From Gammaproteobacteria bacterium (GTDB lineage Bacteria; Pseudomonadota; Gammaproteobacteria; Acidiferrobacterales; Sulfurifustaceae), in contig JACQFZ010000048.1 in NCBI GenBank assembly GCA_016199745.1, positions 124,001-188,000 on the forward strand: a DNA stretch of 64,000 nucleotides, written 5' to 3'. Positions 13,004 to 29,231 of this stretch are shown piece after piece. The position numbers and the translations under genes were made by a program. Within the stretch, counting starts at the first letter, position 1; each line of letters opens with the position of its first letter. The notes beneath the pieces are model-generated. The model did no database searches. It had not been told where the DNA came from and saw nothing but the letters and a program-made list of their open reading frames with translations.

Positions 13004-14374
13004 ATGGAAAACGATAACGTCACTCGCAAGCCGAGACCGGGACACCGCGGTGATACGGCGGCGGAAGTGAATCCGGACGTCGAACGTGCGGCGAGCAAGC
13101 CTCGCCCCGGCGGCCGTCCCCTGCCCGTTGCGCCGACGCCAGCGGAAAATTTCGACCCGACGCTGGTCAAACCGCGTCAGGTTGCACCGCATACGCCGAT
13201 TACGCTGAGCGATCCGCCGAAATTCAAACAATCGGTGTTGGTCGATGCGGCATCGCAGTTGCTCTCGCTCACGCCGCAACTACGTTACCTCGACAGCCAA
13301 ATCAATGTGCCGCAGCTTCACCTACAAGCGGTGCATTGCGTTAAGCGATTGCAACAAGTGTTGGCCGGCGCCGATCTGACGGAAAAAGTGCGGACCAATG
13401 CGAGTTACGTGCTATGCGCGCTGGTCGACGAAACCGTGCTCAATACGCCGTGGGGCGAGCACAGTACCTGGAGCCAAAAAACACTGCTCAGCGTGTTTCA
13501 TCACGAAACCTACGGCGGTAAACGATTCTTCGACATCTTGCGCGAAGCGCTGGACGGGCCGCGTCGGGATTACGATTTTATCGAGTTGCTCTACTTGTGT
13601 ATGTCGTTAGGTTTCATGGGCAAGTACCGCATCGACCCGCAGGGCAAAGTTCATATCGAGCAACTGCGCGCCGATACGCACGCCATCTTGCAGGCCGGAC
13701 GCGATCGCTACAACGAAACGTTGTCGGTCAACATCAAATCGGCGTCCGACATCAAACGGCAATTACACAGCTATCTACCGGTTTGGTTACTGACCGGCAT
13801 ACTGGCGCTGGCCGCCTTCGGCCTCTACACCCACTGGCTGCTCGGCCTCAATCAACGCACCGACCAACTACGCACCGAGCTGGCCTCGCTGGTTCCAGCG
13901 CCGGCGCAGCCGTTGCCGCAGGGTCGTGTTCGTCCCGTGGTCGTGCAACTGCGTGAGCTGCTCGCGCCGGAAATCGCCCGACAGATTTTGCGGGTCGACG
14001 ACTACGGCACGCGCATTACCATCGTGCTGCAGACGGAAGAGATGTTCACCTCCAGTCAAAGCGACATTCATGCGGCGTTCCATCCGATATTGGACAAAAT
14101 CGCCAAAGCACTGGAAGCGATCCCCGGCCGGGTGACTGTTTCCGGCCACACCGACGATCGCGACATTCGCACATCGAGCTTCCCCTCCAATTGGCATTTA
14201 TCGCTCGCCCGCGCCAGCGAGGTGACCAAATACATGAGCAGCGTCGCGGCGCTAACTGCACGTCTGATTCCGGAAGGACGCGGTGCTAACGAACCGATTG
14301 CCGGTAACGACACGCCGCAAGGGCGAGCGCAGAACCGACGCGTGGAGATTGAAATCTTCAATTCGAGTACTTAG
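13004..14374 (+). CDS. tssL: T6SS inner-membrane protein TssL with C-terminal OmpA domain
   Basis: A 456-residue protein in three parts. A Pro/Arg-rich N-terminal tail covers about 1-70. The DotU domain covers about 78-245, with 'YVLCALVDETVLNTPWGEHSTWSQKTLL' and 'FHHETYGGKRFFDIL'. One membrane helix covers about 258-280 (YLPVWLLTGILALAAFGLY). A periplasmic OmpA-like peptidoglycan-binding domain covers about 345-456, with 'VSGHTDDRDIRT' and 'GRAQNRRVEIEIF'. The fused OmpA domain would anchor the complex to the wall without a separate TagL. Confidence 0.95.
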   Translation: MENDNVTRKPRPGHRGDTAAEVNPDVERAASKPRPGGRPLPVAPTPAENFDPTLVKPRQVAPHTPITLSDPPKFKQSVLVDAASQLLSLTPQLRYLDSQINVPQLHLQAVHCVKRLQQVLAGADLTEKVRTNASYVLCALVDETVLNTPWGEHSTWSQKTLLSVFHHETYGGKRFFDILREALDGPRRDYDFIELLYLCMSLGFMGKYRIDPQGKVHIEQLRADTHAILQAGRDRYNETLSVNIKSASDIKRQLHSYLPVWLLTGILALAAFGLYTHWLLGLNQRTDQLRTELASLVPAPAQPLPQGRVRPVVVQLRELLAPEIARQILRVDDYGTRITIVLQTEEMFTSSQSDIHAAFHPILDKIAKALEAIPGRVTVSGHTDDRDIRTSSFPSNWHLSLARASEVTKYMSSVAALTARLIPEGRGANEPIAGNDTPQGRAQNRRVEIEIFNSST

Positions 14375-17500: not shown

Positions 17501-18151
17501 TTCGACCAAGCCATCAAGGGCCGTTACCCGATCGATCCGGCGAGCGCCGTCGACGTCAAGCTCGACGACTTTACCGCCTTCTTCGGCCCCGGCGGCATTT
17601 TGGATCGGTACTTCACTACGAACATCAAACCGTTCGCCGATACCGATCGCGAGCAATGGCGCTGGCGCAAACCAGTCGGCCTGTCCGACAGCGCGCTGAA
17701 ACTGTTCGAGCGCGCCCGTCGCATTCAGCGAGCCTATTTTGGGAGCAAACCCGGCGCACCGCAGGTTGGCTTCAAGCTAGTCCCCTATTCGCTCGACCGC
17801 GCCGCCAGTCGCGTACTGCTCCAGGTTGGCGATCAAAGCGTCGCCTATGAACACGGCCCGCTGCACACCAGCACCGTGGTATGGCCAACACCGGATAACG
17901 ACAGCGCCAAAGTCGTGTTTACGCTGGCGAACAAAGGCACACCGATCAGCGCGCAAACGCAAGGTCAGTGGAGCTGGTTCCGGTTGCTCAACAAATACGC
18001 CACCCGTGAACGCGGCACTCAGAATGACGACTTCCTGTTGACGTTCACGGTACAAGGCGTCGAGGCGCGCTTCGAGCTAAGCCCGCAAAGCACGTACAAC
18101 CCGTTTGCTAACAACGACGTCCAACACTTTACGGTGCCACGGCGGCTATGA
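14588..18151 (+). CDS. tssM: T6SS membrane protein TssM (IcmF)
   Basis: A 1187-residue TssM. The N-terminus has two membrane helices (about 14-40 and 50-72). A GTPase-like cytoplasmic domain follows with Walker A 'GAPGSGKTTTLKNSG' at about 141-155 and 'AVLIDTAGRYTTQ'. A third membrane helix at about 455-477 precedes the large periplasmic region, and the C-terminal 'ARFELSPQSTYNPF' segment is the TssJ-contacting domain type. The start is a TTG; ATG at residue 14 is an alternative. The stop overlaps the tagF start (ATGA). Confidence 0.95.
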   Translation: MFRRLFRRFFAFLMQRWVLALLVIIVLALLIWFVGPLIAVADYKPLVSQVVRLLIIVAMLIIWGLTNLRLRTVETKTNKALAEKIERNVDDRETPHSPKSAAITADESILGERLKEALRSLQNAKLGRGRKLYQLPWYVIIGAPGSGKTTTLKNSGLRFPLQSQLGDEPVKGAGGTRYCDWWFTNEAVLIDTAGRYTTQDNPQKIENRAWLGFLNLLKKTRPKRPLNGIIIAVSILDVLRKTPTQQALQTSAIKRRIQELNEQLSMNLPVYVIFTKLDTIAGFAAFFADLEPQQREQVWGMTFPINISKSGKAGNTLAQFDAEYQALISRANDRVTNRLHNERDPQRRTLAYEFPRQMLGLQNQVHAFLQNIFSPNQFELTALLRGVFFLSGTQTNAPAQWVTGVLPVDRCTPPVTTYSVDPKSFFIKNLFSNLIFAEANMASANTRAERRFRWVYAAFVIAVVCSFVGTLVFWKISEQRNLAHIDRIYADITRYREQTHGGVKSAVDWLTLANGLDVLKAMPTGYDQGDKRPMMLMGFGLYQGDKIGAQARLTYLKILERFFLPAVSEQLLQQMRDARNDQDALYQALKFYLMLHQPEKMDAKLFGAWADALWQRQLPGEPYAPLRESLNMHLQVAIAQQLPPPAIDQRQVDAAREILNKAPLEQRLYRNLKNQLLRDHSQQFVVADVLAGKADTLFFRRSGAPLTQGIPWLFTYEGFHTGFNLQTKQLGKRLADEQWIYGDYAAKLSADQTNELIALVERQYFSEYIDRWKALLNDLAVNSFNNANRGGAVLRTLSSSSTPLLTFLKSVRRHTALSELPGVSDQTKQVAATLATQATPNRLTQFVPLGNDVKVRLPGQVVSDEFQTLNDFVNKDGDGTPIRQLQQSLVALNGYFQNLTQTGDIQRAAYDANTSAAQGTDPVYMVSRAVADSPSPVREWFQSVSVDSSRVTATATQGHLNSVWSSEVVSFFDQAIKGRYPIDPASAVDVKLDDFTAFFGPGGILDRYFTTNIKPFADTDREQWRWRKPVGLSDSALKLFERARRIQRAYFGSKPGAPQVGFKLVPYSLDRAASRVLLQVGDQSVAYEHGPLHTSTVVWPTPDNDSAKVVFTLANKGTPISAQTQGQWSWFRLLNKYATRERGTQNDDFLLTFTVQGVEARFELSPQSTYNPFANNDVQHFTVPRRL

Positions 18152-18894
18152 CGGACACGACTAACCCCTGCGGTCTGTTCGGTAAGGTGCCGCAACAAGC
18201 GGACTACGTCAGCCACCATCTGCCGGAGTCCTTCACCGAGTATTGGCATCACTGGCTGCAATCGGCAATGAGCGTCAGCCGCGAGCAATTGGGCGAGCGT
18301 TGGCTCGACTTCTATTTGACTAGCCCGATTTGGCACTTCGCCATTTCGCCGGGCGTCTTTGGCCACCAAGCGGCGGTCGGTGTATTGATCCCGAGCATCG
18401 ATGAAGTCGGCCGCTATCTGCCGCTGACCGTGGCGCATGTACACGCGACCCATCAACCCTGGCCGGCCTATCTCAAAGGCGGCGATTGGTATCGGGCGGC
18501 ACAGGATGTTGCCTTGAGCGCGCTCAACGAACAAACGAGCTACACGCAATTGATCGGCGCGCTCGAATCATTGCAGGCGCCACCGTTCCCGCCGGTGCCG
18601 TACTACGAGACGCAACACGCGAATCACGGTTTGGGCAAAGGCTACTGCGTCTCTGCGCCGGCCGATCAAGCCCGCGAGCAACTCACCGCGAGCTTGCTTG
18701 ACGTCACGTACACGCGGTTACTCAACAGCTACAGCGTGTGGTGGACCGACGGCTCAGCGCATGTCGAACCTTGTTTGCTAATCAGCGCCAACCTGCCGGA
18801 AGCCGGGCAGTTCGCCGCCATGCTCGACGGCCAGTGGCAACGCTGGCACTGGTCGATCGAGCAGCGCGTCACACGAGAGGCGAATGGACGGTAA
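18148..18894 (+). CDS. tagF: T6SS-associated protein TagF (ImpM family)
   Basis: A 248-residue protein with the TagF N-terminal pattern 'GLFGKVPQQADYVSHHLPESFTEYWHHWL' (read in shorter pieces), then 'LTSPIWHFAISPGVFGHQAAVGVLIPSIDEVGRYLPL'. TagF is a post-translational repressor of T6SS firing in several species, often acting with the FHA protein, and tagH is present in this cluster. It overlaps tssM by four bases. Confidence 0.9.
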   Translation: MTDTTNPCGLFGKVPQQADYVSHHLPESFTEYWHHWLQSAMSVSREQLGERWLDFYLTSPIWHFAISPGVFGHQAAVGVLIPSIDEVGRYLPLTVAHVHATHQPWPAYLKGGDWYRAAQDVALSALNEQTSYTQLIGALESLQAPPFPPVPYYETQHANHGLGKGYCVSAPADQAREQLTASLLDVTYTRLLNSYSVWWTDGSAHVEPCLLISANLPEAGQFAAMLDGQWQRWHWSIEQRVTREANGR

Positions 18895-19168: not shown

Positions 19169-20890
19169 ATGACCGCCGCACTTCCCACCCAAGCCAAGCG
19201 CTTGGTTCGTATCAAGACCACGCTCGGTGCCGACGCGCTGATCGTCAATAGCGCCCACTTTTCAGAATCGATGTCGGCGCCCTTTCGTTACCACCTCGAT
19301 GTGTTCTCGGAAACGCATCTCCACCTAACCGCTAAAGATATGGTGGGAACACCGGTGACGATCGAGCTGGTGCGCGACGACAACACCTTGCGCCCGTTTC
19401 ACGGCTACATCAGTTCACTACAGATTATCGGCGGCGCGCGCGAAGGCCAGCAGACGCACTATCAGATCGCCGTCGAATCATGGCTGATGTTCTTGCGACA
19501 CTCGAGCGACTGCCGAATTTTTCAGAACATGAAGGTCGATGAAGTCCTGAAACAACTCTTCGCGAACGTGAAGCTCGCCAAGCATAAATTCACGCTGACG
19601 CAATCGCATGTCACCCAACCGTACTGGGTGCAATACAACGAGACGAGTCTCAACTTCTTCCACCGCCTATGCCAGCGCGAAGGGTTAAGTTATTACTTCA
19701 CGCACAAAGACGGCGAGCACACCCTCAACGTGGTCGATTCTGCCGACAGCCTGCCCTTCCTCGATCCGTCGGCACTGAAATTGCAGCCGGGCACCGCCGC
19801 CCATGGGCATCTAACCAGTTGGATTCCCAGCAACCAATTCGTCACCGGCAAACACGTGCAACGCTCGTACAACTACGAGCAACCGCGCGACACGCTGACC
19901 GCGAACGCCACCGTCCCGGGCGACATCGCCGGGGTTGCCAACGTAACCGACGTCGAGCACTTCAACTACAGCGAAGACTACGACTACAGCAACGACGGCC
20001 AAGAAGAAACTGCCCGGCGCGCGCATCAACAAGCGGTCGCGGCGCACAACCTATGGCGGGCAAAAGGCGATTATCTGCACATCGCCCCGGGTCATCATTT
20101 CCAAGTGGTGCCGGTGCCGAGCAGCCCCAGCTTCGCCGATAACGGCAAAACCTTTACCGTCATGAGCGTCGCGATCCACGCCGACGACGTCAGCGGCACG
20201 TGCAGCGCCTCGTTCGAGGCAATTCCCCAGGGCTCCTTGGTCTTTGCGTCGGGCGATTCCTGCCGGATCCATAGTTTACAAACGGCCGTCGTCACCGGCC
20301 CCGCCGGCGCCGAGATCCACACCGATGCTTTTAACCGCATCAAGGTGCAGTTCCACTGGGACCGCTACGGCAAGAACGACGAGAACACCACTTGCTGGCT
20401 ACGCGTCATGCAAGCCGTCGCCGGCCCCGGCTTCGGTGCGCATTTCACGCCGCGCATCGGTCAGGAAGTCGTGGTCGCCTTCGAGAACGGCAATCCAGAT
20501 CGCCCGTTCGTGCTGGGCTCGCTGTATCACGCCGAGAACAATCCGCCCTACGCCGCTCAAAACGGTACCCGTAACGGTCTGCGCACACGCTCGACCAAAG
20601 GCGGCGGCGCGTCGAATTTCAACGAGCTCTACTTCGAAGACAGCAAAGGGGCCGAAGAAGTGTATGTGCAGGCGGAAAAAGATCTAAACGCCAAGGTCAA
20701 GAACAACGAGACCCGCAACATCGGCAACAACCAGACACACAAGGTGGGTAAGGTCGTGACCGTCGAGGCCGGCGAAAAAATCCTGCTCAAGGCCGGCGCC
20801 AGTACGATCGAATTGAACGCCGATGGCACGATTAAGATCAACGGCCAAACATTGGTCGAGGTGAAAGGCGGCACGGTCACGCTGAACTAG
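19169..20890 (+). CDS. vgrG: T6SS spike protein VgrG (TssI)
   Basis: A 573-residue VgrG behind a perfect AAGGAGG site. The gp27-like part includes 'FSESMSAPFRYHLDVFSE' and 'VESWLMFLRHSSDCRIFQN'. The gp5/OB part includes 'KVQFHWDRYGKNDENTTCWLRV', 'GAHFTPRIGQEVVVAFENGNPDRPFVLGSLYH' (read in parts) and the C-terminal beta-helix repeats ending 'ELNADGTIKINGQTLVEVKGG'. There is no extra C-terminal effector domain. It lies 45 bases before the rhs gene and is probably its carrier. Its 19915-19987 segment is duplicated at 26248-26320. Confidence 0.95.
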   Translation: MTAALPTQAKRLVRIKTTLGADALIVNSAHFSESMSAPFRYHLDVFSETHLHLTAKDMVGTPVTIELVRDDNTLRPFHGYISSLQIIGGAREGQQTHYQIAVESWLMFLRHSSDCRIFQNMKVDEVLKQLFANVKLAKHKFTLTQSHVTQPYWVQYNETSLNFFHRLCQREGLSYYFTHKDGEHTLNVVDSADSLPFLDPSALKLQPGTAAHGHLTSWIPSNQFVTGKHVQRSYNYEQPRDTLTANATVPGDIAGVANVTDVEHFNYSEDYDYSNDGQEETARRAHQQAVAAHNLWRAKGDYLHIAPGHHFQVVPVPSSPSFADNGKTFTVMSVAIHADDVSGTCSASFEAIPQGSLVFASGDSCRIHSLQTAVVTGPAGAEIHTDAFNRIKVQFHWDRYGKNDENTTCWLRVMQAVAGPGFGAHFTPRIGQEVVVAFENGNPDRPFVLGSLYHAENNPPYAAQNGTRNGLRTRSTKGGGASNFNELYFEDSKGAEEVYVQAEKDLNAKVKNNETRNIGNNQTHKVGKVVTVEAGEKILLKAGASTIELNADGTIKINGQTLVEVKGGTVTLN

Positions 20891-20935: not shown

Positions 20936-23900
20936 ATGTCCACTGTTATGCCAACCACGCCTGGCGTGTTGGAAGTTCTACCGTTTACGAGCCGCCAGCC
21001 GTCGTTTCATCCGCCGCTCGTGGTATATGGGCTAACCGAGCTCTGGGTGTTTACCGACGGTGCATTTACACCGAGTCCGTGGTTGCTGTTATTTCGCCAA
21101 TCGCGGGCGATGCCGCGGGTTGACCACTTGCGTTACGACAGCCTCGCCCTAGCCGGCCGGCCACCCTTAAGCGGTGTCTATCGCCACTTCTTCGGCGATG
21201 GGGCCACGCCGCATACGAGTGGCTGGTCGGCGCTCACGGATCTTAATCGACTGCAAAATGCGCTCGATAGCGGCACGATTCGGCTGTATCGGTTGAATCG
21301 GCGCTTGCATGAATCGCGGTTGCATAACCCGCAGGATCCGCTGTGGGTCGACCCTCCGCAACATCTCTACGATGCCGCCAATCTGGACGACAACCGTTCG
21401 GCATTGATTCACGAGCTGGGGCTCACACTGCTCGCGCGCTGGCACGCGCGCGATCTCGACAACGGCGCGTTTTATGCGGCGTCGTGGAGCGAGCAACGCT
21501 TGATCGAAATTAAAGCCTCGTTCGCGGCGGCGCGTACCGGCGTGCAGGAAGGCGTGACCAGTCTTAAGCACTTGCCCCAGGAGTTGAAGGCGCTGGGGTC
21601 GGCGGCACTGACGCTGGCCGCCGATGTCGGGCGGGTCGAGCTCGATATTCTGGAGAAGATCGGGCATGTCGTGACACTCGACACCGAGGCGATGGCGAAA
21701 GATGTCGAAGCCTTGAACCGCGAGTTCGTGGCGCTCGGTATCCGTACTATCAAAAATACGCAAGAGCTGATCGCGTTGCTCAAGAAGGGACGCGATATGT
21801 GGAACCTCGTGTACACCGATCCCCTCGTACGCGACGCCTTGCTGTCTTACCTCGTCGGTTACACCCAATCCATCGGTCATATGACCGAGCTTAAGGCCGA
21901 CAGCAAGTTCGCAGGCCGCGTGGTGTTCGAGGTGCTGTTGTTCGTCGCCGGCGGCGAGGTCATCGATGCCGTCAAGGCCGGTGTCATGGCCACACGCGCC
22001 GGGATGGCGGGTCGTGGCGCCGCCGCGGCGGCGGCCGAAGCGAGCCGGTTCATTGGGCCGTTCACGAAGCGCGCGCTGGGTTATGTGACGAAGTTGGCGG
22101 ACTTGATGCAGGCGCGGAAGCTGAAGGCGGCGCAGGAGGCGGAAGCGGCGCGGCTGGCGAAGGCGCCGGCGAGTCAGGGGGCGCCGGCACGCGCGGCAGA
22201 ATCCGAGGCGGCGGCGACGAAGGAGGCCGAGGCCAACGGGGGGAAGAATAAAAATGGCGAGGGATGTTCGGCGAATAGCAAGACTTGCCAAGGCGGCGAG
22301 CCGATCAGTCTCGTCACTGGCGAGGAGCTGCTAAGTCGCAACGACTTTACGCTGGCGGGTTTATTGCCGCTGACCTGGGCGCGCCACTACCGCACCAGCA
22401 ATCCTGACGACATTGGCTTGGGTTATGGCTGGACGCACCCGCTGAGTGAACGACTCACGATCACGGGGGATCGGACGTATTACGAGGATGCCGAAGGTCG
22501 TCTCATTCCCTTTATTACGCCAACGATGGGTGGTGAAAGCAGCAATCGATCGGAACAGCTGACGCTGTGTTGCCCAGCGCCGAATCGTTATGTCATTCGT
22601 GCGAGCCAAGGGGGACGCATTGCGCATCATTTCGCCCAGGTGGGCGATGCCTATCGATTGACGCAGATTCGCGACAGCGCCGGCAACCATCTGGACCTGC
22701 ACTACCCTGATGGCGTGTTGACGCAAGTCACGAGTGGCATGGGCGAGGCGTTGCGATTCGAGTACACCGACGATGCGCGGATCAAAGCTGTCCACAAGCA
22801 TACGGCCGATGGTGAGACGACATGTCTCGTCCGATACGAGTACGACGCGCAACACGACCTGGTCGCAGCGTATGACGAAGTTGGTGCCTGCGAGCGCTAC
22901 GAATACGTCAATCACGTCATCACCAAGCGCACGTTAAAGAGCGGTTACTCGTTCCACTTTGAATGGGATCAATACACCTCGAAGGCACGCTGCCTGCGCA
23001 ATTGGGGTGATCCTATCGATGGGGAACCAACGTACGATTATCGGTTTGAGTGGGACCCGACCAATAAAACTAACTCCGTTATTGATACGCGCGGTGGACG
23101 ACAGACGTACCAGTTCAACGACCTCGGCCTACCGGTCTATCACCGCGATGCCGAAGGAGGAGAAACGCGTTATGCCTATGATGCGGACGGCAAACTGATC
23201 CAGATCACGGATGTGCTGGGACATAGCGAGCGCTTCACTTATAACCAACGGGGGTTGTTGCAAACCCGCGTCGACAAAAACGGTCACCGGCACCAGTACC
23301 GCTACAGCGTTAATGGCCAGCCGGTCAGCTACACCGACCCGCAAGGTCACGTCTGGCAGCGGCAATACAACGAACACGGTCAACAAATCGCGAGTCTCAA
23401 TCCGCTGGGTGAGGCGACTCGCTATCAGTACAACGCGCTGGGACTGATCAATGGAGTGACAGATCCGCTCGGTCGGCATACGCGGTATGTCTGGGATAAT
23501 AAAGGACAGTTGACGGCGATCCGCGATGCCATGGGGCAACACACGCGCTATCGCTACGACGGCCAAGGGCGGTTGAGCGAAAAGGTGCGGCCGGATAACC
23601 AGCGCCTTCGCTACGAGTACGATGTGCGCGGGCGTTGCACCGCGGTCATTCAGCCGGACGGGACGAAGCGCCAATACCAATACAACAGCCTCGATCTACT
23701 CGAACAGATTACAGATGAGAGCGGTAAGCCGACGCGGTATGAGTACAACGGCTTGTCGCAAGTCACCCGCCGCATTGATCCCCTGGGCGAGGTATTGCGC
23801 TATCACTACGACGGCGAGCGCAATCTCATCGGTCTTACGAATGAGTCGGGAGAACGCTACCGATTACGGTATGACTTAAACGAACGCCTGATCGAAGAGA

Positions 23901-25834
23901 TCGGCTTCGATCAGCGCCGTCAACAGTATCACTACAACCTTGCCGGCCACCTGATCGAACAGCGGGAGATGGGGAAGAAAGGCGCCCTCCTCACCCAAAC
24001 CCAGTTCGAGCGCGATCCGATGGGGCGGTTGCTGGGCAGCGATAGCGGCGACAGCAGCACGCGATTTAGCTATGACCCGATAGGCCAATTAACCGCCGCC
24101 GACAACGCGCATCGGAAGCTGCGCTGGCAATACGACCCGGTCGGACGATTGCTCGAAGACTGGCAGGATGAGGCCAAGATCGAGCACCGGTACGACGCGG
24201 CGGGCCAGCGGATTAAAACCACCCTACCCGATGGCCAGATGTTGCGGTTTGAGTACGACGACATCGGCGGGTTCACGGGGCTGTATCGTAACGATCAGCT
24301 CATCGCGAACGTGGGGCGGGATCTGGCTGGGCGTGAGATCAACAAACGTTACGGTAATCACCTTGAGACGCACAGTGACTATGACCCACAGGGACGACTC
24401 ATTGCGCAGCGCACGATAAAACTCGCGGGTGATGCCGTTGCGAATCATCCTACCGTCGATCCCTTCGCCATACGAAACTACCAGTACGACGCGCGCGGCC
24501 GGCTGACCGGGATCGATGATAATCGCCGGGGTGGGATTCGTTACCACTACGACGCGATGGATCGGCTGACGCAGGTTGACGGCCCAACGCCCGAAGCGCT
24601 GCTCCATGATCCGGCCAACAACGTGCTCGCGATGGCGGCGAATCGGGACGATGCCGATGCTGAAGCACTTAGCACGAAGGTCCAAGGTAATCGACTGCTG
24701 TTCCAAGGCGACACACATTATCGCTACGACCAACGTGGTAACCGCATCGAGGCGGCGCGGGGGAAAAACAAGAAGCTCAAGACACGCTATGTCTACAACA
24801 ACAGAAACCAGCTGACCGATGTTGTCAAAAACGACGACCAGTACGTTACATTCCAATACGACGCGCTCGGACGGCGTATTAACAAAACGCTCGAAGGGAA
24901 ATACACGACGCGCTATCTGTGGAACGGGGACGTACTGCTCCAGGAAACGCGGACCGAGAAAGCAGCGACGGAAGTAGAACAGGAAATCGCCCTTCCCGCT
25001 CGGACTTATCTGTATCAACCCGACACGTTCAAACCGCTGGCGCTCGTTGAGCAGGATAAGATCTTTTACTACCACTTGGATCATCTCGGTACACCGCTCG
25101 AACTGTCCAACGAACACGGCGAGATGGTTTGGGCGGTTAGCTATAAGAGTTATGGCAACCTTGCGATTAAGCATGAAGCGCAGATTGAGCAGCCGATTCG
25201 GTTTCAGGGACAGTATTACGATGAAGAGACAGGGCTGCATTACAACCGGTATAGATATTATGATCCCGGAATCGGCCAATTCATTACGCAAGATCCGATC
25301 GGCCTCAAGGGCGGCATTAACAGTTATCAGTACGTTCCCAATCCCACGGGGTGGGTCGATCCGCTGGGATTGACGGCGAAGGAAATCGCAAGCGTTTGCC
25401 CGAAGTCGCTTCCTAAAGGAATAGATTATGATGGAACCGTATATCGGTTTGAAAATCCCGATCGAATTAATACAACGTGGGATACCCATCAGTGGAATAA
25501 GGCCGCAAATCATCGATATACAGAGCCCGGTAGAAGCGGCGTATATGGTGCAACCTCTGCTAATACAGCGCATGCAGAAATTTCACACTATGGCGCACTG
25601 CAAGGCAGGGAGCTGGTTAGCAAACAAGTCCATGTCGAGAATGTCTTGGATTTAACAAGCCCTCAGGTAAGAGAGCAGCTCGGCGTATCTTTGGAAGATA
25701 TAACAGCTGGAAACAGCTACGATGTTACCCACCAGTTGGGCCGCTTCGCTCAAGATAACGGCTATGGGGGTATTTTAGCCCCATCAGCTCGAGATTCAGC
25801 TGGTTCAAACTTAATATCCTTCTCTGGACTCTAA
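20936..25834 (+). CDS. Rhs-repeat T6SS effector with C-terminal RES-type toxin domain
   Basis: A 1632-residue protein. Residues 1-430 are a non-PAAR N-terminal region with amphipathic/hydrophobic helices (about 330-385). The Rhs cage starts at about 440 (SKTCQGGEPISLVTGEELLSRN) and contains many YD repeats (for example RYAYDADGKLI, RYQYNALGLI). It ends with 'GQFITQDPIGLKGGINSYQY' and 'WVDPLGL', where Rhs proteins self-cleave. The tip (about 1480-1632) has the RES signature: HRY (Arg1527), VYGATS (Tyr1537), AHAEIS (Glu1548) and LAPSAR (Ser1617), ending in SNLISF. RES toxins deplete NAD+. The tip's DNA is visibly more AT-rich than the cage, as for swapped Rhs tips. No EagR-type chaperone gene is present. 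Confidence 0.9.
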   Translation: MSTVMPTTPGVLEVLPFTSRQPSFHPPLVVYGLTELWVFTDGAFTPSPWLLLFRQSRAMPRVDHLRYDSLALAGRPPLSGVYRHFFGDGATPHTSGWSALTDLNRLQNALDSGTIRLYRLNRRLHESRLHNPQDPLWVDPPQHLYDAANLDDNRSALIHELGLTLLARWHARDLDNGAFYAASWSEQRLIEIKASFAAARTGVQEGVTSLKHLPQELKALGSAALTLAADVGRVELDILEKIGHVVTLDTEAMAKDVEALNREFVALGIRTIKNTQELIALLKKGRDMWNLVYTDPLVRDALLSYLVGYTQSIGHMTELKADSKFAGRVVFEVLLFVAGGEVIDAVKAGVMATRAGMAGRGAAAAAAEASRFIGPFTKRALGYVTKLADLMQARKLKAAQEAEAARLAKAPASQGAPARAAESEAAATKEAEANGGKNKNGEGCSANSKTCQGGEPISLVTGEELLSRNDFTLAGLLPLTWARHYRTSNPDDIGLGYGWTHPLSERLTITGDRTYYEDAEGRLIPFITPTMGGESSNRSEQLTLCCPAPNRYVIRASQGGRIAHHFAQVGDAYRLTQIRDSAGNHLDLHYPDGVLTQVTSGMGEALRFEYTDDARIKAVHKHTADGETTCLVRYEYDAQHDLVAAYDEVGACERYEYVNHVITKRTLKSGYSFHFEWDQYTSKARCLRNWGDPIDGEPTYDYRFEWDPTNKTNSVIDTRGGRQTYQFNDLGLPVYHRDAEGGETRYAYDADGKLIQITDVLGHSERFTYNQRGLLQTRVDKNGHRHQYRYSVNGQPVSYTDPQGHVWQRQYNEHGQQIASLNPLGEATRYQYNALGLINGVTDPLGRHTRYVWDNKGQLTAIRDAMGQHTRYRYDGQGRLSEKVRPDNQRLRYEYDVRGRCTAVIQPDGTKRQYQYNSLDLLEQITDESGKPTRYEYNGLSQVTRRIDPLGEVLRYHYDGERNLIGLTNESGERYRLRYDLNERLIEEIGFDQRRQQYHYNLAGHLIEQREMGKKGALLTQTQFERDPMGRLLGSDSGDSSTRFSYDPIGQLTAADNAHRKLRWQYDPVGRLLEDWQDEAKIEHRYDAAGQRIKTTLPDGQMLRFEYDDIGGFTGLYRNDQLIANVGRDLAGREINKRYGNHLETHSDYDPQGRLIAQRTIKLAGDAVANHPTVDPFAIRNYQYDARGRLTGIDDNRRGGIRYHYDAMDRLTQVDGPTPEALLHDPANNVLAMAANRDDADAEALSTKVQGNRLLFQGDTHYRYDQRGNRIEAARGKNKKLKTRYVYNNRNQLTDVVKNDDQYVTFQYDALGRRINKTLEGKYTTRYLWNGDVLLQETRTEKAATEVEQEIALPARTYLYQPDTFKPLALVEQDKIFYYHLDHLGTPLELSNEHGEMVWAVSYKSYGNLAIKHEAQIEQPIRFQGQYYDEETGLHYNRYRYYDPGIGQFITQDPIGLKGGINSYQYVPNPTGWVDPLGLTAKEIASVCPKSLPKGIDYDGTVYRFENPDRINTTWDTHQWNKAANHRYTEPGRSGVYGATSANTAHAEISHYGALQGRELVSKQVHVENVLDLTSPQVREQLGVSLEDITAGNSYDVTHQLGRFAQDNGYGGILAPSARDSAGSNLISFSGL

Positions 25835-25840
25835 AGAACT

Positions 25841-26095
25841 ATGAACGATCAGCAGTGGAATGATTATGCCTCCCTGTTCTTGCAGGAGTGGAAAAGCTCG
25901 GATATCAACGATCAACTTCTGGGCGTGGTCGGCGATAAATTACTAGCATCGGTAATAGCCTTTCATTTCGGTAAAGATGCATTGCATTGGCTGGATCGAC
26001 CCGTCGATGCCCTGGGCGGTCGGAAACCACGAGAATGTTTGAGCACGACGAATGGAATCAAAGACCTAAAAGAAATACTTATGCGCATGCACTGA
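25841..26095 (+). CDS. Candidate immunity protein resembling the Xre/MbcA/ParS antitoxin toxin-binding domain
   Basis: An 84-residue protein starting six bases after the rhs stop. Its second half (about 44-84) reads GKDALHWLDRPVDALGGRKP then ECLSTTNGIKDLKEILMRM. This is the pattern of the Xre/MbcA/ParS C-terminal toxin-binding domain (A..WL..P...LGGR.P...L.T..G...V...L..I). That domain partners RES toxins in chromosomal toxin-antitoxin pairs. The helix-turn-helix half of such antitoxins is missing, so it should not bind DNA. By position it is the immunity protein of the Rhs-RES effector. Confidence 0.7.
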   Translation: MNDQQWNDYASLFLQEWKSSDINDQLLGVVGDKLLASVIAFHFGKDALHWLDRPVDALGGRKPRECLSTTNGIKDLKEILMRMH

Positions 26096-26247: not shown

Positions 26248-26320
26248 CCCGGGCGACATCGCCGGAGTCACCAACGTAACCGACGTCGAGCACTTCAACT
26301 ACAGCGAAGACTACGACTAC
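26248..26320 (+). pseudogene. vgrG relic (73-bp duplicated fragment)
   Basis: This segment matches vgrG positions 19915-19987 with three mismatches in 73 bases. In vgrG it encodes the end of the gp27-like region (DVEHFNYSEDYDY). Immediately after the match the sequence diverges into a stretch encoding a hydrophobic segment (ALLIGAVIAVIGF) and a stop. It is a leftover of a second vgrG-like gene or a gene-conversion scar. Confidence 0.85.
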
Positions 26321-26354: not shown

Positions 26355-26606
26355 TTGGTTTTTGTTCTCCTGAAAAACGAAGATGAAAAGCTGCCTCATT
26401 TGTTGAAGGTGTTTTCAGAAGAAGGGACTGAACTCGCGGAGATCACGACACCGAAAGACTTTCAATTTTACTATCTGACAAAACATCCGGTGCTGGGCAC
26501 CGCAATCGTAGGTGTAACGAATAATGCCATTGACGGGTGGCAAGATTGGCATTTTGGATATGATGCAAAAAAGAAGGCGCTATTCAGACACTCGCCTTCG
26601 TACTAA
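26355..26606 (+). CDS. Orphan immunity-like small protein, possibly truncated
   Basis: An 83-residue ORF from a TTG start with no good ribosome binding site. It has a mixed alpha/beta composition (KLPHLLKVFSEEGTELAEI, then WQDWHFGYDAKKKALF) and no recognised family. The frame just upstream encodes a membrane-helix-like stretch in another phase (ALLIGAVIAVIGF), so an original membrane-anchored protein may have been frameshifted near 26360. The place, behind a vgrG relic, suggests an orphan immunity gene. Confidence 0.4.
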   Translation: MVFVLLKNEDEKLPHLLKVFSEEGTELAEITTPKDFQFYYLTKHPVLGTAIVGVTNNAIDGWQDWHFGYDAKKKALFRHSPSY

Positions 26607-26614
26607 ATATAAGC

Positions 26615-27789
26615 GGCTCTTCGCGCAATCGTGTGGGTGATTTTCGACCATTTTAGAGGACCGGCAACATGCACGTCAGTATCTTGAGCCGCAGGTATTC
26701 CTCGTCACGCAGACCGTAGGCGCGGCGCTGGATGACGCGGATCTTGTTGTTGAGTCCTTCGACGAAGCCGAGTGAGACTTTGTTCTCGGGTTCACAGTAC
26801 ACGGCGATGCCATCCCAATGACGATCGATCATCTCGGCGAACTTCTCGAAGGGTTCGAGTCGCTGCCACTTAAGGCTGGCGCGCCAATTCTCGAAGAAGC
26901 GCCGTGCCCAACCCTCGCGTTCGTAGCTCCACAGTTGGCCGAAGGATTCCTTGAGCAGGTAGGCGGTGTTCAATCGTTTGTTGGCGACCAACAAGTTCTT
27001 CAACGCTTTCCTGCCATCGAGATTCAAGTTCTCGCGGTGCGAGAGCAGCGTGTATTTCTGGCCTTTGATGTAGTGACGTTTCTTGCCGGTGAGCCTGGCG
27101 TATTCTTTCTTACGCACCTGATCAAGCGCCTCGTTCAAGTGGCGCAGGATGTGGAACTTGTCGAACAGGATCGCGGCCGCCGGTGCGCACTCGCGGGTTA
27201 CGTTACGAAACGGCTTCCACATATCCATCACCGCCAGACGGAGTCGTTTTACCTTCTTTTTCCCGAGCCAATCGTAGAACTGACGCATGCTGGCCTCCTA
27301 GCGGTCGTCACCGCCAAACCAGATCGGACGGTGGCGCACGAGGTCACTTACGACGATGCGGTAGGTGTGTCCCTTGCGGATCGAGATCTCATCGATGCCG
27401 ATGGCCTTAGGTGCTGGGGTGCCCATGCGTTTCAACTGTTCACGCATGTACTGCTTCTCCAGTTCCTTGATCGTGTGCCAGTGGAGCTTCAATTCGTGCG
27501 CCACGTCCTTGATGCTGGCGGTGCGACAGCGTCGCCCGACGAACCAGGCAAACCGCTTGGTGTAAAACGGATTGTCGGCCAGGAAGTCGAGTCGCTCGCG
27601 TTTCACCTTGCGGCAACGCCGACAGAAGACGCGCCGCACCTCGAATTCGAGAGTGACCCGCATATCGGCGCAGCCGAGATCGCGCACCGATCGCGACGTG
27701 CGATCGTACCAACCCGCGTGCGATCGCCCGCAGGCGCCACAACCTGTTTTTTTGAGCGCCGAGTGAGCGTGATGACGCGTGCCGTCGGA
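26615..27789 (-). mobile_element. Degenerate insertion sequence, ISL3 family type
   Basis: One end begins GGCTCTTCGCGCAATCGTGT at 26615, the usual ISL3-family terminal motif (GGCTCTT). The transposase reads leftward toward that end. No matching inverted repeat was found near 27790-27890, so the promoter-proximal end appears to be truncated or replaced. No target duplication could be seen. Confidence 0.6.
26653..27789 (-). pseudogene. ISL3-type transposase, broken by an amber codon and truncated at the N-terminus
   Basis: The upstream part (27298 upward) carries a zinc-binding pattern (CGACGRSH and later FCRRCRK), a helix-turn-helix region and the first catalytic Asp region (AIGIDEISIRKGH). 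The downstream part (26653-27288) has 'AVMDMWKPFRNV', 'FDKFHILRHLNEALDQVRK' and 'NNKIRVIQRRAYGLRDEEY'. The two lie in the same frame, separated by TAG at about 27298-27300 inside a conserved stretch (IWFGGDDR-stop-EASM). The frame is closed upstream by TGA at 27790-27792. A run of seven A residues near 27747-27753 offers a further frame change to an upstream ORF. Not functional as it stands. Confidence 0.85.
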
Positions 27790-28644: not shown

Positions 28645-28998
28645 ATGGTCCTTATGGTCGGCCATCTGATAATCAATACACCAAATATATCCAACAAAGC
28701 CGATTGGGAAATGGAAGATTGGAAATTCATTATTGTAGGTTTGGAGTATCTGCTGCAGTTTCAGAAACAACCGATGGAATACGTCGACATTATGTGCGAC
28801 GCCATCATACAGAAAAGAGGAATGTCATTTTCTGTTCCGGAAACTTTAGCTGCTCTATCTGACGTCAAAAAAGCCGACGTAGATATCGCAACGTTACTTC
28901 CCCAACCGCATTCGGAGGCGACGCTGCGTGAATTTTTTGCAGCGTTGGAGGCGAAATTAATCGAAACGAACTCATCGTCTTTGTTGCCGCCTCTTTAA
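28645..28998 (+). CDS. Hypothetical protein, probably the C-terminal part of a decayed immunity-like gene
   Basis: A 117-residue ORF, largely helical, with 'WKFIIVGLEYLLQFQKQPMEYVDIMCDAII' like content and a C-terminal 'TLREFFAALEAKLIE' helix. The ATG has only a weak AGAG site, and the frame upstream is closed by TAG ten bases earlier. Two short ORFs in the other frames upstream could supply a lost N-terminus. No family recognised. AT-rich relative to the T6SS core. Confidence 0.4.
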   Translation: MVLMVGHLIINTPNISNKADWEMEDWKFIIVGLEYLLQFQKQPMEYVDIMCDAIIQKRGMSFSVPETLAALSDVKKADVDIATLLPQPHSEATLREFFAALEAKLIETNSSSLLPPL

Positions 28999-29015
28999 AA
29001 AGAAAAGACGGGGTC

Positions 29016-29231
29016 ATGAACAAGAGTGACGCTGCTAAAAAATTGAAATATTTAGTGGAGAAATATTTAGTTAACGACCCAGATCGAGCTTATCTGGGCA
29101 GCATCATAGACGACCCGCAACGCCCGCTTCCAATAAGAGGCGTATTAGACCACATGGGAAAGTACCGGGGCCAACCGTATACGGTCGACGACAGAGGGCT
29201 TATCGATGAACTTTTATATCACTACGGTTGA
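29016..29231 (+). CDS. Small hypothetical protein
   Basis: 71 residues, starting 17 bases after the preceding ORF. It is charged and helical at the start (KSDAAKKLKYLVEKYL), then has 'RAYLGSIIDDPQRPLPIRGVLDHM'. The site before the ATG (GACGGGG) is weak. No family recognised. The region is of the orphan-immunity type, so a small immunity protein is possible. A further 44-codon ORF (29236-29370) links it to the HD gene but has an unusable ribosome binding site. Confidence 0.45.
   Translation: MNKSDAAKKLKYLVEKYLVNDPDRAYLGSIIDDPQRPLPIRGVLDHMGKYRGQPYTVDDRGLIDELLYHYG

What the first reader, a model, noticed from the sequence alone, without database searches (positions are those of the whole stretch)
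25375..26095. Rhs effector tip is a RES-type toxin, guarded by an antitoxin-like protein that has lost its DNA-binding half
Seen: after the WVDPLGL end of the Rhs cage, the last ~150 residues carry Arg1527, Tyr1537, Glu1548 and Ser1617 in the contexts expected of RES domains. Six bases on, an 84-residue ORF has the WL..P...LGG..P pattern of the Xre/MbcA/ParS toxin-binding domain and no helix-turn-helix. Known: RES toxins consume NAD+, and Xre-type antitoxins block them by inserting their C-terminal domain. Inference: a chromosomal RES/Xre toxin-antitoxin module was recruited as a T6SS effector/immunity pair, with the immunity protein reduced to the toxin-neutralising part.
Basis: partly seen in the sequence, partly recalled or inferred. 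Interest (0 to 1): 0.88.

Follow-up and report, generated by a model that had tools for sequence, protein, structure and literature searches.

The report
Injected RES toxin with stripped-down antitoxin
This bacterium's type VI secretion weapon ends in an enzyme of a family that destroys the cell fuel NAD+, and next to it lies a small protective protein related to the toxin-binding half of an ordinary toxin-antitoxin repressor; the same pair occurs in many Pseudomonas, where the small protein had been reported as having no recognisable relatives.

Summary
Confirmed, and broader than the window. The last ~150 residues of the Rhs protein score to Pfam RES (47.2 bits, cut-off 23.2). In a predicted model they match the solved RES toxins MbcT, NatT, ParT and P. 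putida RES (Z 9.9-15.7; next other fold 5.9). The 84-residue ORF six bases downstream scores to the Xre/MbcA/ParS toxin-binding domain (31.7 bits, cut-off 24.5). The rhs stop codon closes its frame just upstream, so it cannot carry a helix-turn-helix. Twenty-six other genomes (24 Pseudomonas, two enterobacteria) carry the same tip followed at once by a 92-93-residue relative, probably including Tfi2 of P. fluorescens F113, published as having 'no homologues or recognizable features'; the window protein links that family to antitoxins. Rhs-RES effectors are already known. New are the origin of the immunity protein, the swapped gene order, and a second loss: these proteins also lack the last few residues of ordinary antitoxins, the end that in NatR reaches into the toxin's active site. 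Activity, neutralisation and binding mode are untested.

The parts
13004..14374 (+). TssL (DotU + OmpA domains), T6SS cluster
   Evidence: Pfam DotU 189.7 bits, OmpA 56.2 bits
14588..18151 (+). TssM (IcmF)-like T6SS membrane protein (judged by length, position and sequence; not scanned)
   Evidence: ORF of 1187 aa between TssL and TagF
18148..18894 (+). TagF
   Evidence: Pfam TagF_N 146 bits
19169..20890 (+). VgrG spike protein, directly upstream of rhs
   Evidence: Phage_GPD 230 bits, Gp5_trimer_C 76 bits
20936..25834 (+). Rhs effector, 1632 aa: N-terminal 453 aa without Pfam match, DUF6531, 15 RHS repeats, RES tip
25292..25372 (+). Rhs-core autoproteolysis motif DPIGL-x17-DPLGL; the tip begins after it
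   Evidence: RHS core match ends at residue 1479
25376..25831 (+). Toxin tip, RES domain (Pfam match 25439-25825)
   Evidence: PF08808 47.2 bits, E 3.1e-12; fold match to MbcT Z 15.7
25514..25516 (+). codon of Arg1527, RES active-site type residue
   Evidence: invariant in 18 tips and 21 of 21 ordinary RES toxins
25544..25546 (+). codon of Tyr1537
   Evidence: invariant in 18 tips and 21 of 21 RES toxins
25577..25579 (+). codon of Glu1548
   Evidence: invariant in 18 tips and 21 of 21 RES toxins
25784..25786 (+). codon of Ser1617 (Arg1619 follows, present in 20 of 21 RES toxins)
25841..26095 (+). Immunity protein, 84 aa, Xre/MbcA/ParS C-terminal toxin-binding domain without helix-turn-helix (Pfam match 25976-26089)
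   Evidence: PF09722 31.7 bits, E 1.5e-7; model pLDDT 94.3, pTM 0.84; fold match 8gug_B Z 6.6, 1.7 A over 54 residues
26248..26320 (+). 73-bp remnant of vgrG (96% identical to 19915-19987) just past the immunity gene

Best explanation
The rhs gene encodes a T6SS polymorphic effector. Its Rhs cage should cut itself at DPLGL and release a RES-family enzyme of the MbcT/NatT kind into a neighbouring bacterium, where it consumes NAD(P)+ by phosphorolysis or hydrolysis and stops growth. The gene directly downstream encodes the cognate immunity protein. It is homologous to the C-terminal toxin-binding domain of Xre/MbcA/ParS antitoxins, lacks the helix-turn-helix and the last few residues, and protects the producer by binding over the RES active-site cleft. 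Without a helix-turn-helix it most likely works by binding alone and is made from the effector transcript. Shown here: family membership of both proteins, the RES fold and conserved active-site residues, the pairing in 26 other genomes, absence of the helix-turn-helix and of the terminal residues. Inferred: secretion, NAD(P)+ loss, neutralisation, binding site, and descent from a toxin-antitoxin module.
For: RES profile score over cut-off, the only RES in this 4.3-Mb genome. Fold of the tip: MbcT Z 15.7, NatT 15.2, ParT 11.5, VPA0770 10.5, P. putida RES 9.9-10.4; next fold PARP2 at 5.9. R47, Y57, E68, S137 of the tip (Rhs 1527, 1537, 1548, 1617) invariant in 18 tips and 21 of 21 ordinary RES toxins. 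Immunity: PF09722 over cut-off; 18 of 26 family members match PF09722 and 20 of 26 match NF049845 individually at E<=1; all 13 leading structural matches are antitoxins of RES/ParT toxins. Profile comparison of the window protein with ordinary antitoxins P 1.1e-6, with the Pseudomonas family 5e-11, reversed control 0.35. Pairing: 26 relatives of the tip, each with the small gene starting at the tip's stop codon or within a few bases of it; in 398 genomes of the phylum, tips in full-length Rhs frames and the small protein occur in the same two genomes. Setting: VgrG upstream, T6SS genes, DPIGL-x17-DPLGL; cassette GC 47.6% against 56.6% in the Rhs core, as expected of an exchanged tip. Relatives in the literature: RES toxins deplete NAD+; NatT is an NAD(P)+ phosphorylase (PMC11535050, PMC12204516).
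Against: No activity data. ParT, a RES-fold relative, is reported to ADP-ribosylate a target rather than only to consume NAD+ (PMC12204516), and an Rhs tip of ADP-ribosyltransferase fold modifies RNA (PMC13324451), so the target could differ. The tip lacks the last ~20 positions of the RES profile (match ends at 135 of 157). The fused tip-immunity model is not confident overall (pTM 0.65). Without the window sequence the Pseudomonas immunity family reaches ordinary antitoxins only weakly in profile comparison (P 0.049).
Confidence: 0.83

Rival explanations
1. The tip is a RES-fold enzyme that transfers ADP-ribose to a protein or RNA (as ParT or some Rhs tips do) instead of depleting NAD(P)+; the neighbour is still its immunity protein.
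For: ParT, a RES-fold relative with Z 11.5 to the tip model, is reported as an ADP-ribosyltransferase (PMC12204516); RhsF, an Rhs tip of ART fold, modifies RNA (PMC13324451).
Against: Closest folds are MbcT and NatT (Z 15.7, 15.2), clearly above ParT; NatT is an NAD(P)+ phosphorylase (PMC11535050). The tip keeps the RES residues shared with 21 ordinary RES toxins, Arg1619 included.
Confidence: 0.12
2. The 84-aa protein is not an immunity protein but a leftover of a toxin-antitoxin operon, or a regulator, that merely lies next to rhs.
For: Stand-alone PF09722 proteins of 65-90 aa without an evident nearby RES exist elsewhere.
Against: 26 of 26 relatives of the tip are followed at once by the same small gene; no helix-turn-helix and no room for one; where the tip frame is broken (L061) the small gene is still intact.
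Confidence: 0.05
3. The immunity protein is unrelated to antitoxins and resembles them only by convergence on the same toxin.
For: The Pseudomonas family by itself reaches antitoxin profiles only weakly (P 0.049), and most identity is in one short motif.
Against: The window protein scores over the Pfam cut-off and aligns along its whole length with ordinary antitoxins (P 1.1e-6) and with the Pseudomonas family (5e-11); its model matches 8gug_B at 1.7 A over 54 residues.
Confidence: 0.05

Closest known systems
Tfe2-Tfi2 of Pseudomonas fluorescens (ogarae) F113 (PMC7970981)
   Same: Rhs effector with a RES tip and a 92-aa gene immediately downstream; P. brassicacearum, P. thivervalensis and P. 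corrugata relatives found here have the same layout and a 92-aa immunity protein. The F113 sequences themselves were not at hand, so membership of Tfi2 in this family is inferred.
   Different: F113 Tfe2 has an N-terminal PAAR domain and an EagR chaperone; the window's Rhs has no recognised PAAR and follows VgrG directly. Tfi2 was reported to have 'no homologues or recognizable features'; here its probable family is linked to antitoxins.
RES-Xre toxin-antitoxin modules (P. putida Xre-RES, NatR-NatT, MbcA-MbcT, ParS-ParT, VPA0769-VPA0770)
   Same: Both proteins are homologous to the two partners; same active-site residues; same toxin-binding domain.
   Different: Toxin fused to an Rhs cage for injection; gene order toxin then immunity instead of antitoxin then toxin (30 of 30 ordinary pairs); no helix-turn-helix; last few antitoxin residues missing.
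Tox-RES of polymorphic toxin systems (Zhang et al. 2012, PMC3482391)
   Same: RES as a tip of RHS and filamentous-haemagglutinin toxins was listed, T6SS delivery included.
   Different: The immunity listed there for polymorphic RES toxins is Imm51; DUF2384 is listed only for the toxin-antitoxin form. The enzyme was then predicted to be an RNase.
T6SS NADase effectors Tne1-Tne5 and Rhs NADases of Serratia (PMC13285283, PMC10539506)
   Same: Injected NAD(P)+-consuming tips with a cognate immunity gene.
   Different: Other enzyme families; the passages read do not mention RES, MbcT or Xre. PMC10539506 is known here from its abstract only.

Membership tests
RES toxin family (PF08808) | Profile score above the curated cut-off | tested here: met
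   47.2 bits against 23.2; relative P0001 52.7 bits
RES toxin family (PF08808) | Conserved Arg, Tyr, Glu and Ser of the active site | tested here: met
   Present, invariant in 18 tips and 21 ordinary RES toxins
RES toxin family (PF08808) | RES variant of the ADP-ribosyltransferase fold | tested here: met
   Model matches the solved RES toxins at Z 9.9-15.7, others at 5.9 or below
RES toxin family (PF08808) | NAD(P)+ consumption | not testable with these tools
   needs an enzyme or cell assay
Xre/MbcA/ParS antitoxins (PF09722) | C-terminal toxin-binding domain | tested here: met
   31.7 bits against 24.5; all 13 leading structural matches are such antitoxins
Xre/MbcA/ParS antitoxins (full-length, autoregulating) | N-terminal helix-turn-helix | tested here: not met
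   84 aa, frame closed by the rhs stop, no HTH family hit; relatives are 92-93 aa from their best ATG, likewise
Xre/MbcA/ParS antitoxins (full-length, autoregulating) | C-terminal end beyond the last helix, which in NatR enters the active site | tested here: not met
   Window protein and 8 aligned relatives end about 5 residues before the 6 antitoxins of the P. putida type and about 2-3 columns before the 4 ending in RGKV/RGRV/RGKI
Xre/MbcA/ParS antitoxins (full-length, autoregulating) | Neutralises a cognate RES toxin | not testable with these tools
   pairing in 26 genomes is consistent; fused model inconclusive, pTM 0.65
T6SS Rhs effector with cognate immunity | RHS repeats with C-terminal core motif and variable tip | tested here: met
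   RHS_repeat 237.6 bits, Rhs_assc_core 98.5 bits, DPIGL-x17-DPLGL
T6SS Rhs effector with cognate immunity | T6SS genes and VgrG next to it | tested here: met
   TssL, TagF, VgrG
T6SS Rhs effector with cognate immunity | PAAR or other known N-terminal trafficking domain | tested here: inconclusive
   no Pfam match in residues 1-453
Imm51 (immunity listed for polymorphic RES toxins) | Imm51 profile match | tested here: not met
   no Imm51 among the Pfam families matched by any of 26 members at E<=1

The most novel reading that the evidence does not exclude
An antitoxin was converted into an effector immunity protein by losing both its DNA-binding half and the C-terminal end that reaches the active site in the toxin-antitoxin form, with the gene order reversed; the immunity protein must then block a RES enzyme in a way not seen in any solved RES-antitoxin complex, and without any autoregulation.
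Probability: 0.35. Interest if true: 0.65.

Novelty: new variant of a known kind. Interest (0 to 1): 0.52.

Why it matters
It ties an immunity family that was reported without recognisable relatives, present with its effector in at least 24 Pseudomonas genomes, to a well-studied antitoxin domain, and so predicts where and how it binds. It gives a concrete pair for the question of how toxin-antitoxin modules and injected effector-immunity pairs turn into one another, including what an antitoxin may lose once it no longer regulates its own operon.

Tried and rejected
Viral contigs, phages and plasmids: no close relative of the tip; the weak plasmid hits (24-44% identity) are mostly ordinary RES toxins. 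Profile of the immunity family against solved-structure sequences: best E 0.55, though the two best are antitoxins. A first mixed alignment misplaced the N-termini of the small proteins and was replaced. A regular-expression search for antitoxin neighbours of RES genes was too strict and was replaced by the PF09722 search. Rejected: chance match (two independent families, both over cut-off, side by side); a longer immunity ORF with an HTH (frame closed by the rhs stop).

Full report
What is there. The window holds part of a type VI secretion cluster: TssL, a TssM-like protein, TagF, VgrG, then an Rhs protein of 1632 aa (20936-25834) with 15 RHS repeats and the core motif DPIGL-x17-DPLGL. After DPLGL come 153 residues of tip. 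Six bases after the rhs stop an 84-aa ORF begins (25841-26095). The organism belongs to the same class as Pseudomonas (kinship table; G746 and Pseudomonas syringae PA-4-7F share a contig of 135,612 bases); it was not identified further.

The tip. Pfam RES (PF08808) scores 47.2 bits against a cut-off of 23.2 and covers profile positions 2-135 of 157. It is the only RES in the genome. In the AlphaFold2 model the tip part matches the solved RES toxins far above everything else: MbcT Z 15.7 over 146 residues at 2.7 A, NatT 15.2, ParT 11.5, VPA0770 10.5, P. putida RES 9.9-10.4, then PARP2 at 5.9. The NatT paper lists R82, Y93 and S184 among the conserved active-site residues and R186 among those that hold a phosphate (PMC11535050); the order and spacing in the tip fit, which is my reading, not a residue-by-residue superposition. 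NatT's Flap (residues 26-66) has no counterpart of that length: 22 residues separate Arg1504 and Arg1527 in the tip.

The small protein. Pfam Xre_MbcA_ParS_C scores 31.7 bits against 24.5 over residues 46-83. Its model is confident (pLDDT 94.3, pTM 0.84): helices 3-14, 21-30, 33-51, a turn, helix 70-82. All 13 leading Foldseek matches are antitoxins of RES/ParT toxins, though each with a weak E-value (best 0.06); VIA-align gives VPA0769 (8gug_B) Z 6.6, 54 residues at 1.7 A, residues 31-84 on 90-145, i.e. only the last third of that 150-residue antitoxin. The Z is below the level that would stand alone, but it agrees with the sequence scores. The rhs stop lies in the same frame two codons before the ATG, so the open frame is only 86 aa: no helix-turn-helix can be hidden upstream.

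It is a family. The tip has one relative among 398 genomes of the phylum in a full-length Rhs frame (61% identity) and none in 95 relatives of the host. A scan of 85,000 species genomes gave 26 homologous tips at 55-62% identity: 24 Pseudomonas, Erwinia oleae and Winslowiella arboricola (a 27th hit, 38% over a short stretch, was not used). In every one a small gene of 92-93 codons (counted from the best ATG) begins within a few bases of the tip stop. The window protein is 25-32% identical to them over the whole length, with W50, V55, A57, L58, P63, C66 and L67 among the invariant residues. Individually 18 of 26 match PF09722 and 20 of 26 match the RES/Xre antitoxin model NF049845 at E<=1; L035's protein alone gave no Pfam hit. 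Profile comparison shows the window protein as the link: to ordinary antitoxins P 1.1e-6, to the Pseudomonas family 5.3e-11, Pseudomonas family to antitoxins alone 0.049, reversed control 0.35. A search of 398 genomes with the immunity profile found only the two genomes that carry the tip.

What was known. Zhang et al. 2012 (PMC3482391) listed RES as a tip of RHS and haemagglutinin toxins, with Imm51 as immunity and DUF2384 only in the toxin-antitoxin form. P. fluorescens F113 Tfe2-Tfi2 is an Rhs-RES effector with a 92-aa downstream gene; [quoted passage not shown] P. brassicacearum, P. thivervalensis and P. corrugata in my set have 92-aa immunity proteins in the same place, so Tfi2 very probably belongs to this family (inference; its sequence was not at hand). 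No paper found links an Rhs-RES immunity protein to the Xre/MbcA/ParS domain; the library holds open-licence papers only.

Differences from toxin-antitoxin modules. In 30 of 30 ordinary pairs read off the antitoxin gene comes first; here the toxin does, as an Rhs tip must. Most ordinary PF09722 frames are about 120-200 aa. The immunity proteins end about 5 residues before P. putida-type antitoxins, which continue with a tail such as E-x-G-V-Y-S, and 2-3 columns before those ending in RGKV. In NatR the last helix reaches into the active-site cavity (PMC11535050).

History of the locus. Tip and immunity gene have 47.6% GC, the Rhs core 56.6% and VgrG 58.6%; third positions 41% in the tip against 63% in the core. 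A 73-bp piece of vgrG, 96% identical to the gene upstream, lies 150 bp past the immunity gene, followed by an ISL3 transposase. This fits exchange of Rhs tips by recombination. Erwinia oleae has a tip with only 57 codons of open frame before it, and Winslowiella a broken tip with an intact immunity gene. Whether the toxin-antitoxin form or the effector form came first is not tested.

Mechanism, step by step. Shown: families, folds, active-site residues, pairing, absence of the helix-turn-helix and of the terminal residues. Taken from relatives: NAD(P)+ phosphorolysis or hydrolysis (NatT and other RES toxins; PMC11535050, PMC12204516). Inferred: release of the tip by autoproteolysis, delivery by this T6SS, neutralisation by cleft binding, absence of autoregulation.

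Noticed in passing
window 26248-26320: 73-bp fragment 96% identical to vgrG (19915-19987) downstream of the immunity gene, probably a scar of recombination in the effector region.
   Followed up: partly
window 26653-27687 (-): ISL3-family transposase split over two ORFs, probably a decayed insertion sequence.
   Followed up: no
window 26355-26606 and 28645-29231: Small ORFs without Pfam matches between the Rhs locus and an HD-domain-like gene; candidate orphan immunity genes.
   Followed up: no
window 20936-22295: The first 453 residues of the Rhs protein match no Pfam family, so no PAAR domain is recognised although VgrG lies directly upstream.
   Followed up: no
L003:176-520 (G000:C20, -): A 114-aa protein with a second Xre_MbcA_ParS_C domain at the very end of a contig; a toxin partner would lie beyond the contig end.
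   Followed up: partly
L036:2-1416: Another RES domain (51.9 bits) at the end of a longer protein cut off by the contig end, followed by a Cys-rich 147-aa ORF with no clear family: possibly a different kind of RES immunity protein.
   Followed up: partly
L077:2915-3960: Three tandem genes with Xre_MbcA_ParS_C domains (72, 69 and 129 aa), two of them too short for a helix-turn-helix as well.
   Followed up: no
L078:4163-4360 and L079:3405-3677: Stand-alone Xre_MbcA_ParS_C proteins of 65 and 90 aa with no evident RES gene among the listed neighbours.
   Followed up: no
L061:4001-4713: Winslowiella arboricola: the RES tip frame is interrupted while the immunity gene is intact.
   Followed up: no
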